A stretch of 64,000 nt of DNA from Polaromonas sp. OV174 (lineage in GTDB: Bacteria > Pseudomonadota > Gammaproteobacteria > Burkholderiales > Burkholderiaceae_C). A program made the position numbers and the translations under genes. Location of the stretch: the NCBI RefSeq assembly GCF_900112285.1, contig NZ_FOKZ01000001.1, positions 186,001 to 250,000 on the forward strand, written 5' to 3'. Below are positions 2,231 to 10,390 of this stretch, piece by piece (the stretch's first letter is position 1; every line of letters starts with the position of its first letter). The notes beneath the pieces were generated by a model that saw only the letters and a list, made by a program, of their open reading frames with translations, made no database searches and had not been told where the DNA came from.

Positions 2231-2310
2231 CCTCAAGTTTCCAGCTTGTCAATCAGGCGCGTGTGACCCCGCTTGGCGGCACCCGCTCCACGTTCAGTGC
2301 GACGGCCAGA
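2231..2310 (-). pseudogene. Duplicated 3' end of panC (remnant)
   Basis: The first 50 bp match the 3' end of intact panC (9540-9589) at 47 of 50 positions, in the same orientation. Weaker, gapped similarity runs on for about 30 bp. Translated, it gives AAKRGHTRLIDKLET then stop, against AAKLGHTRLIDNLEI then stop in PanC. Nothing upstream of this tail remains. Together with intact panC it brackets the 7.3-kb accessory operon as a direct repeat, which suggests that segment was inserted at, or duplicated from, the panC terminus. Confidence 0.75.
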
Positions 2311-2319
2311 CAACAACAG

Positions 2320-3132
2320 TCAGCGAGGTCGACCAAATAGGCCGCTGATAGAAAACTTGATCTGTGACCACAAAGCCTTCAGACCAATACTCAACATATT
2401 GAGCTCTTGCTGGGGCTTGGGTTTGGGCGCCTTTGTCGTAGCGTTTCCAGCTTGAAATCGCAAAAGCATCTCCTGCGTCGATGCCATGACCGATTGGGCC
2501 TGGCCCAAGACGGCTTGTGCCTGGTAGAGCAGCGTTTGTGCGTCCAGCGCCTGCCCGCCAGATGCTAGCGGCGGCATGGCGAAATTGGCAGGAGGCGGCG
2601 CAATGGCGGCACCCACCGGGTTCGGCGGCACGGAGGCATTGGAAACTGCTGCGTGCGTGGCCGCGGGATTGGGTAAGTCGTCTTGTGACAGTGAATCTGC
2701 CAGATTGCTCTCAAACTGCTTGAGGATGTGGGATGCCACCTCTGCGATCATCCCGCTGCCTCGCCCATATTGCGCTACCGCACCGGAAAGCTGCAGTTGG
2801 GTGGTTACCGTGACCGCCGTGCCGCTGCCTTCCGGCTTGAGCGCAAAGCTGAACTCGGACTGAGCCGCTCCGCGCCCTTTGGGATCCAGTCCCGAACCCT
2901 TTAGCCACGCAATGTGATTTGCGTCGTCTTTTTTGACGAGTTCGGCTTGCCCGTCAAAAGCGAGTTTGATGGGCCCCAACTTTACGGATACAGATCCACG
3001 GTATTTATCCGGGCCCAGAATTTCGGTTAGCTTGGCACCAGGCAGACACGGCATGATGCGCGGGACGTCGAGCATCAGCTTCCAGGCATCTTCCAAGGGC
3101 AATGGAACGAAAAAATGATTGCTGAACTCCAT
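2320..3132 (-). CDS. CoxG-like SRPBCC protein of a molybdenum hydroxylase cluster
   Basis: 270 residues. The N-terminal 150 residues form a CoxG/SRPBCC lipid- or ligand-binding fold (VPLPLEDAWKLMLDVPRIMPCLPG near the start, typical of CO-dehydrogenase subunit G). A Pro/Ala-rich linker follows, then a C-terminal amphipathic segment (LKALWSQIKFSISGLFG) that in CoxG proteins is linked to membrane association. CoxG relatives recruit the Mo-hydroxylase to the membrane or its quinone acceptor. It is last in the operon; a good AAAGGA site lies 8-9 bases before the ATG. The stop adjoins the panC remnant. Confidence 0.82.
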   Translation of the reverse strand: MEFSNHFFVPLPLEDAWKLMLDVPRIMPCLPGAKLTEILGPDKYRGSVSVKLGPIKLAFDGQAELVKKDDANHIAWLKGSGLDPKGRGAAQSEFSFALKPEGSGTAVTVTTQLQLSGAVAQYGRGSGMIAEVASHILKQFESNLADSLSQDDLPNPAATHAAVSNASVPPNPVGAAIAPPPANFAMPPLASGGQALDAQTLLYQAQAVLGQAQSVMASTQEMLLRFQAGNATTKAPKPKPQQELNMLSIGLKALWSQIKFSISGLFGRPR

Positions 3133-3144
3133 GGAGTTTTCCTT

Positions 3145-9231: not shown

Positions 9232-9247
9232 ATAGGTGCGCAACGCG

Positions 9248-9273
9248 CCTCTATACGCTTAGCGTCTTAGAGG
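9248..9273. repeat. Short imperfect stem-loop
   Basis: CCTCTA and TAGAGG outer arms with ACGCT/AGCGT inner arms and small bulges. It sits 17 bp from the 22-bp palindrome. There is no T tract, so it is not an obvious intrinsic terminator. Confidence 0.4.
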
Positions 9274-9541
9274 GTTTAGAGCGCCAAAGCATTGACTTGG
9301 CCAGGCGGATCAATGTCCTTTGAAGCGTGTCGTGACGAAACAGCTGTGAGCGTGGCGCTTGGACTTGATCCCACCACCACCGCCCGCAGATGGTTTAAAA
9401 AGCCTTGAAGGCAAAGGCTGGCTTTGCGCCACTATCAGAACCGCTACAGCTGGCTCATTCAGGTCGTCTGAAGATGCTGTATCTGAGCGCTCTGTTATTT
9501 GTTGGCCGTCAAGTCGGTCACATGGGCCTTACAAAGAGGCC

Positions 9542-10390
9542 TCAAATTTCCAGGTTGTCAATCAGGCGCGTGTGACCCAGCTTGGCGGCGCCCAGCACCA
9601 CCAGTGACTGGTCGGCCAGCGCGCCATGTGGCGGCTGCAGGTCGGCGCGACGGCGCACCGTCAGGTAATCGGGTTTCCAGCCGCGCCGTGCCAGCGCCTG
9701 CATGGCTTGCGCTTCCAGCGCCGGCAGCTCGGCGGGCTGGGCCGCTTTGGCGGCTATGCCCAGCGCTTTCAGGGCGACGGAGAGTTGCGCAGCTTCCGCG
9801 CGTTCGGCCGGGCTTAAATAGCCGTTGCGCGATGACAGCGCCAGCCCGTCTTCGGCGCGCTGGGTTTCGCCGGCCAGAATCTCGATGGGCAGGGCAAACT
9901 GCTGCACCATGCGGCGCACCACCATCACTTGCTGATAGTCTTTTTTGCCGAAAGCGGCCACGCCCGTGGGCATGCCGGCAAACACGCAGGAGAAAAGTTT
10001 CATCACCACCGTGCTCACGCCAATGAAGAAACCGGGTCGGAAGTGGCCTTCCAGAATGTCGGCGAGGTCATTGGCGGGGTGAACCTTGTAGCTTTGCGGC
10101 TCGGGGTAAAGGTCTTTCTCGCGCGGCGCAAACACCAGATCGCAGCCGGCCGCTTCCAGCCTTTGGGCGTCGGCATCCAGGGTGCGCGGATAGCTGTCGA
10201 AGTCCTCGTGCGGCGCAAACTGCAGGCGGTTGACAAAAATGCTGGACACCGTGACGTCGCCCAGCGGTTTGGCCTGTTTGACCAGGGCGATATGGCCGTC
10301 GTGCAGATTGCCCATGGTGGGCACAAAGGCCGGACGTTTGAAGCCGCTGAGTTTCTCGCGCAGGTCGGCAATGGTGTGAACGATTTGCAT
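9542..10390 (-). CDS. panC: Pantothenate synthetase
   Basis: Condenses pantoate and beta-alanine with ATP to make pantothenate. 282 residues from an ATG preceded by AGGAA; a 13-codon upstream extension would overlap panB and is rejected. The nucleotidyltransferase HIGH-like motif is in PTMGNLHDGHIALV at about 23-36, followed by VSSIFVNRLQF and the family's FGKKDYQQ and SSRNGYLSPAER segments. Last gene of the pan-bio run. Its 3' 80 bp are duplicated at 2231-2310. Confidence 0.95.
   Translation of the reverse strand: MQIVHTIADLREKLSGFKRPAFVPTMGNLHDGHIALVKQAKPLGDVTVSSIFVNRLQFAPHEDFDSYPRTLDADAQRLEAAGCDLVFAPREKDLYPEPQSYKVHPANDLADILEGHFRPGFFIGVSTVVMKLFSCVFAGMPTGVAAFGKKDYQQVMVVRRMVQQFALPIEILAGETQRAEDGLALSSRNGYLSPAERAEAAQLSVALKALGIAAKAAQPAELPALEAQAMQALARRGWKPDYLTVRRRADLQPPHGALADQSLVVLGAAKLGHTRLIDNLEI

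What the first reader, a model, noticed from the sequence alone, without database searches (positions are those of the whole stretch)
2231..9620. Accessory operon bracketed by a direct duplication of the panC 3' end
Seen: 2231-2280 matches the terminal 50 bp of panC (9540-9589) at 47 of 50 positions with weaker similarity beyond, same orientation, including the stop codon. The 7.3 kb between holds a six-gene catabolic operon with no tie to vitamin synthesis. Known: insertion into or duplication of a gene 3' end is a classic trace of site-specific integration or a recombination between relatives. No integrase is present, so the mechanism is open. Three differences in 50 bp point to an old event, or to the two ends coming from different strains.
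Basis: partly seen in the sequence, partly recalled or inferred. Interest (0 to 1): 0.7.

Follow-up and report, generated by a model that had tools for sequence, protein, structure and literature searches.

The report
Displaced catabolic operon duplicating panC's end
In one bacterial genome, likely a Polaromonas, a six-gene operon that likely starts the breakdown of a pyridine compound sits directly behind the vitamin gene panC, between two copies of panC's last 55 bases; relatives have an empty or differently filled site there, the likely partner genes lie on another contig, and the likely route was an accidental copying event rather than a dedicated integrase.

Summary
A 55-nt direct repeat (2230-2284, 9539-9593; 51/55 identical) carries the panC 3' end with its stop codon. 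In the relative G064 panC joins the cupin gene across 211 bp, and window 1957-2284 aligns across that junction, so 2230-2284 is the old panC end and about 7.25 kb was inserted. The idea of two ends from different strains is not supported: both copies share rare states, and the four differences fit changes in the displaced copy, so the end was likely duplicated within the lineage. No integrase or transposase was found in the insert; one border falls inside a decayed MarR-type regulator; only this genome of 87 shows two ends (49 of 87 match the pattern at all). The six genes look like the upper half of a pyridine-type catabolic cluster; the lower half is on contig C14, and relatives keep the halves linked. 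Among 23 relatives with panC and cupin on one stretch, 14 have an empty interval and 9 hold other DNA, including a type III restriction pair and a HEC-01-like pair. Best reading: illegitimate insertion with target duplication at a cargo-prone site; a lost integrase is the main rival.

The parts
1722..2051 (-). cupin gene, native neighbour downstream of panC in relatives
   Evidence: Pfam Cupin_2; 86% identical in G064, 211 bp from panC
2052..2229 (.). native panC-cupin intergenic DNA
   Evidence: 133 of 171 aligned bases identical to G064, 43 gap positions; continuous alignment 1957-2284
2230..2284 (-). displaced original 3' end of panC (last 52 bp with stop, plus 3 bp)
   Evidence: 51 of 55 identical to 9539-9593; joined to cupin in relatives
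2285..9538 (.). inserted block
   Evidence: absent from the G064 junction; 55.9% GC
2320..3132 (-). CoxG-type gene
   Evidence: PF06240 E 2.6e-11
3145..5511 (-). molybdenum hydroxylase large subunit (coxL-like)
   Evidence: MoCoBD_1 and MoCoBD_2; below the NCBIfam CO dehydrogenase cut-offs
5492..6004 (-). molybdenum hydroxylase iron-sulfur subunit (coxS-like)
   Evidence: Fer2_2 E 2.7e-28
6003..6866 (-). molybdenum hydroxylase FAD subunit (coxM-like)
   Evidence: FAD_binding_5 E 8e-44
6879..7874 (-). 4,5-dihydroxyphthalate decarboxylase-like enzyme
   Evidence: PDB 9jp7, E 3.1e-101
7886..8878 (-). TctC-type binding protein
   Evidence: PF03401 E 1.1e-64
9210..9231 (.). perfect 22-nt palindrome upstream of the operon, possible operator
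   Evidence: no close copy in L159
9334..9424 (+). decayed fragment of a MarR-type regulator, residues 62-90 of the C14 protein
   Evidence: frameshift alignment score 59, shuffle mean 30.2, 0 of 120 as high
9539..9593 (-). second copy of the repeat, the working 3' end of panC
9542..10390 (-). panC, intact
   Evidence: TIGR00018 above cut-off

Best explanation
About 7.25 kb of DNA carrying a six-gene operon, likely the upper half of a pyridine-type catabolic pathway, was inserted directly behind panC and duplicated 55 bp that likely come from the host's own panC end, likely by an illegitimate, replication-type (template-switch) event rather than by a dedicated integrase. Shown: the empty site in relatives, the native origin of the cupin-side copy, the intact panC, the lower-pathway type genes on contig C14, and the linkage of both sets in other genomes. 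Inferred: copying left the locus 3 bp past the panC stop, ran over foreign or displaced DNA from inside a MarR-type regulator gene to just past coxG, and returned 55 bp upstream, so panC stayed whole and the old end was pushed 7.3 kb away. Also inferred: the operon hydroxylates and decarboxylates a pyridine carboxylate whose product would feed the 2,5-dihydroxypyridine route on C14.
For: Empty site in G064 and continuous alignment 1957-2284. The displaced copy is 4 changes from the own panC end and at least 9 from each other distinct end; the own end's state at the four places is held by 38, 50, 46 and 50 of 50 others. Both copies share states found in 1, 3 and 5 of 50 other ends, and the His codon is seen in 1 of the 120 best PanC proteins, the window's own. 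One border lies inside a decayed MarR fragment. No integrase, transposase or resolvase nearby. Upper and lower genes linked in G013, G084, L092 and, in part, L095; 4 of 4 genus genomes with the lower dioxygenase carry the close coxL.
Against: The repeat ends 3 bp past the stop codon, as an integrase attachment site in a gene end would; for random copying that is a coincidence. The donor end is not seen, so a template switch is not shown. No Ku gene was found, which removes Ku-type end joining as a variant of this route. The MarR test was chosen after a 24-nt match. C14 shows no footprint of a departed operon. One lower gene (maleate isomerase-like) is closer to G013/G084 (79%) than to L092 (60%), while coxL is closer to L092 (77% against 69-70%), which speaks against one common history of both halves.
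Confidence: 0.42

Rival explanations
1. A genomic island integrated site-specifically into the panC 3' end; the 55 bp are its attachment repeats, the panC-side copy came with the element, and the integrase gene was later deleted.
For: Repeat sits at a gene 3' end, restores the gene, and ends 3 bp past the stop. Islands in protein genes with a replaced gene end are known, the dusA islands for one (PMC4482086, passages seen), and that paper's passages also name a rimO case in Polaromonas naphthalenivorans.
Against: No integrase or remnant in the insert or within about 130 kb on the contig; no second panC end in 38 other panC loci; both copies share the rare states, so the element would have to carry this lineage's own panC end.
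Confidence: 0.3
2. Single crossover of a circular DNA that carried a piece of this lineage's panC end next to the operon, leaving the shared piece on both sides.
For: Conjugated circles gave duplications of 109-950 bp of the homologous locus in 14 sequenced E. coli clones (PMC3240628, passages seen).
Against: Needs a circle that already joined the operon to this lineage's panC end; 55 bp is shorter than the reported duplications; no close operon (best below 60%) in the plasmid collection.
Confidence: 0.15
3. The two panC ends come from different strains, joined by homologous recombination between relatives.
For: Four differences in 55 bp.
Against: The displaced copy is 4 changes from the own end and at least 9 from each of 50 other distinct ends; shared rare states.
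Confidence: 0.03
4. Assembly error or chance similarity.
For: Draft genome of 61 contigs.
Against: 51 of 55 identical with rare states shared; the empty-site alignment runs through the displaced copy; longest exact shared word 24 nt.
Confidence: 0.02

Closest known systems
Genomic islands inserted into protein genes, such as the dusA islands (PMC4482086, passages seen)
   Same: Gene end present on both sides as an imperfect direct repeat, gene restored, original end displaced to the far border, empty site in relatives
   Different: No integrase, gene 3' rather than 5' end, no reuse of the site seen, repeat longer (55 against 21 bp), both copies share the host's rare states
Illegitimate or single-crossover insertions that duplicate the homologous locus (PMC3240628, passages seen)
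   Same: Foreign DNA flanked by a duplicated host segment, no recombinase gene
   Different: Duplication here is 55 bp against 109-950 bp; natural event, donor unknown
nic-type pyridine catabolism with NicX (PDB 7cn3; PMC7910607, passages seen)
   Same: 2,5-dihydroxypyridine dioxygenase homologue with amidase and hydrolase genes on C14, plus molybdenum hydroxylases
   Different: Upper module split off to panC; a dihydroxyphthalate decarboxylase-like enzyme, a Rieske oxygenase and a second molybdenum hydroxylase are added; substrate unknown

Membership tests
Integrase-borne genomic island in a gene end | Direct repeat of the gene end at both borders, gene restored | tested here: met
Integrase-borne genomic island in a gene end | Empty site in relatives | tested here: met
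Integrase-borne genomic island in a gene end | Integrase gene in the element | tested here: not met
Integrase-borne genomic island in a gene end | Same site used by other elements with the same repeat | tested here: not met
   0 of 38 other panC loci; 1 of 87 genomes by a pattern that only 49 of 87 match
Integrase-borne genomic island in a gene end | Circular form | not testable with these tools
   needs culture
Transposon or composite transposon | Transposase and terminal inverted repeats, short target duplication | tested here: not met
   no transposase domain; no inverted-repeat pair joins 2285 and 9538; duplication 55 bp
Illegitimate insertion with target duplication | Copies identical at the start, change only in the untranslated copy | tested here: met
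   by comparison with 50 other ends
Illegitimate insertion with target duplication | Arbitrary insert borders | tested here: inconclusive
   one border in a MarR fragment; the other 35 bp past coxG
Illegitimate insertion with target duplication | Microhomology at the switch points | tested here: inconclusive
   gapped similarity 2285-2309, 109 of 2000 shuffles as good
nic-type pyridine catabolism | 2,5-dihydroxypyridine dioxygenase and maleamate-type amidase | tested here: met
   on C14: 7cn3 E 4e-121; 3ot4, named putative isochorismatase, E 7.6e-101, its maleamate role recalled
nic-type pyridine catabolism | Growth on a pyridine carboxylate | not testable with these tools
   needs culture

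The most novel reading that the evidence does not exclude
The panC-cupin interval of this genus is a landing site where an unrecognised, integrase-free process drops catabolic and defence cargo behind panC, and the 55-bp duplication is a fresh footprint of that process which older cargo has lost.
Probability: 0.12. Interest if true: 0.65.

Novelty: new member of a known kind. Interest (0 to 1): 0.4.

Why it matters
It is a single-event insertion scar with an empty-site control, showing how half of a catabolic cluster can stand apart from its usual partner genes while a vitamin gene stays whole. It also points to the panC-cupin interval as a cargo site holding restriction, defence-like and catabolic genes in different species, which makes integrase-free gene acquisition at a fixed place testable.

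Tried and rejected
Different-strain origin of the two ends: disfavoured. Continuation of the duplication past the stop: 2151-2229 against 9441-9538 scores 8.0, shuffle mean 7.8. The 30-nt match 2186-2215/9140-9169 is at the level of the other short families. A shared operator for the two modules: the 9210-9231 palindrome core has one 3-mismatch match in L159, inside the Rieske gene, and inverted repeats in the promoter stretches tested do not resemble it. A gene-end duplication at the Achromobacter copies of the operon: none in L093 or L094 5500-15000. Plasmid origin: no match for 8879-9541 and no coxL at 60% or more. The family-wide pattern search (397 genomes, 318 with a match) and the genus-wide integrase survey were printed only in part and are not used for counts; the own-genome integrase list was repeated in full. 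Papers: panC as an integration site gave nothing to the point (16 papers hold the terms, 15 listed); a picolinate gene-cluster search held 0 papers; a search on template switching with target duplication held 2, neither on this. PMC3240628, PMC4482086 and PMC7910607 were seen as listings and passages, not whole. Gene names typA, TRAP, maleate isomerase and maleamate amidase are by eye or recalled.

Full report
Setting. The window is G000 contig C18, 186001-250000, from a 4.53-Mb genome in 61 contigs. The genus is read as Polaromonas: named PanC relatives include several Polaromonas, and P0193, named Polaromonas naphthalenivorans, lies on a 4,410,291-base contig, the length of the G024 contig holding panC. 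The genomes searched are unnamed, so this is an inference.

The observation. One long direct repeat: 2230-2284 and 9539-9593, 55 nt, 51 identical, the latter ending panC. Beyond 2284 the similarity is gapped and matched by 109 of 2000 shuffles. Between the copies lie six minus-strand genes: TctC-type binding protein, 4,5-dihydroxyphthalate decarboxylase-like enzyme (PDB 9jp7), three subunits of a molybdenum hydroxylase, and CoxG.

Insertion. In G064 (L033, L143; PanC 89% and cupin 86% identical in protein) panC and cupin are 211 bp apart, and window 1957-2284 aligns through cupin, intergenic DNA and the panC end. The cupin-side copy is therefore the original panC end. Of 40 context loci read, 38 hold panC and 23 of these also hold cupin: 14 gaps of 60-331 bp, 5 of 1014-1121 bp, 4 of 1622-6121 bp. 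None of the 38 has a second panC end downstream in the stretch held (695 to about 13,900 bp): best same-strand score 29, reverse-strand 34, against 87 for the window by the same measure. By pattern, 1 of 87 genus genomes has two ends, but only 49 of 87 match the pattern at all.

Origin of the duplication. Among 51 distinct 55-nt ends (the own one and 50 others, from 120 fetched rows that include repeats of one genome) the displaced copy is 4 changes from the own end and at least 9 from any other. The own state at the four places is held by 38, 50, 46 and 50 of the 50 others; at the first, 8 others have the displaced copy's state. Both copies share states found in only 1, 3 and 5 of 50 others. 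The His codon formed there appears in 1 of the 120 best PanC proteins, the window's own (120 of 2269 hits were listed). The simplest account is one identical duplication within the lineage, then drift of the untranslated copy. That copy differs by 7.3%; panC and the alignable intergenic DNA differ from G064 by 14.5% and 22%. The insertion therefore looks younger than the split from G064, roughly.

What was inserted. GC is 55.9%, against 65.9% for 10000-20000 and 61.6% for 1-2229. The nearest coxL in the genus is 70% identical (9 of 87 genomes, own included, at E 1e-150), the nearest named record 77% (L092, a Comamonadaceae MAG), the nearest protein 94% (metagenomic). At 9334-9424 lies a frame-shifted MarR-type fragment (score 59; shuffles 30.2, SD 5.0, maximum 50, 0 of 120 as high). 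Its query was chosen because its gene held a 24-nt match, so the test is post hoc. A full gene would run past the panC stop, hence the border is read as lying inside it. Open frames of 8861-9545 (5 tested) gave no Pfam match and one PHROG match at E 0.35. The genome has 14 integrase-domain matches, the nearest on this contig about 130 kb away, one resolvase on another contig and no Ku.

The other half. Contig C14 carries a Rieske oxygenase pair with reductase, a MarR regulator, an amidohydrolase of the decarboxylase kind, an Amdase-family gene, an alpha/beta hydrolase, a 2,5-dihydroxypyridine dioxygenase homologue and an isochorismatase-type amidase, beside a second molybdenum hydroxylase. In G013 (L163) and G084 (L164) the six-gene module stands beside these genes; in L095 (Pigmentiphaga MAG) beside the Rieske, amidohydrolase and second hydroxylase genes, with no dioxygenase in the stretch held; in L092 beside the dioxygenase and amidase genes, with no Rieske genes in the stretch held. 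The dioxygenase occurs in 4 of 87 genus genomes, all 4 with the close coxL; a fifth, G022 (78% complete), has coxL alone. In L093 and L094 (Achromobacter) the module stands without C14-type genes, in L094 behind a typA-like gene (by eye). So the panC insert is read as an upper module apart from its usual partners.

Did it leave C14? Open. C14 shows no footprint. For the 11 genes shared by all three, G000 is as close or closer to L095 than to L163 in both modules. Against a common history, the Amdase-family gene is 79% to L163 but 60% to L092, whereas coxL is 69% and 77%.

Mechanism. Copies that fit identity at the start, no recombinase, a border in a regulator gene and no reuse of the site favour an illegitimate, template-switch-like insertion (0.42). 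The repeat ending 3 bp past the stop is the best argument for an integrase (0.30). A single crossover of a circle with a panC end is a third route (0.15).

The site. The interval holds a type III restriction-modification pair in G076, a HEC-01A/HEC-01B-like pair in G063 and two GNAT genes in G032. A DUF2971 match in G081 is below Pfam's cut-off. Contents of the other intervals were not classified. The place looks cargo-prone.

Noticed in passing
L137 (G076) 2591-7551: Type III restriction enzyme and methyltransferase genes fill the panC-cupin interval in this relative.
   Followed up: partly
L138 (G063), 3257-bp interval between cupin and panC: AAA ATPase plus DUF4276-like gene that match PADLOC HEC-01A and HEC-01B models, a candidate anti-phage pair.
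   Followed up: partly
L081 (G032) 11238-12163: Two adjacent GNAT acetyltransferase genes between cupin and panC; four other relatives have intervals of similar length, not classified.
   Followed up: partly
window 9210-9231: Perfect 22-nt palindrome TGTGATCAGCATGCTGATCACA upstream of the operon, no other close copy in the own genome found.
   Followed up: partly
L093, L094 (Achromobacter): The same six-gene module occurs without the lower-pathway genes, in L094 behind a typA-like gene (by eye), so it seems able to stand alone.
   Followed up: partly
L159 (G000 C14) 3500-6747: A TRAP-like transporter (by eye) stands beside the second molybdenum hydroxylase, where G013 and G084 have the six-gene module.
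   Followed up: no
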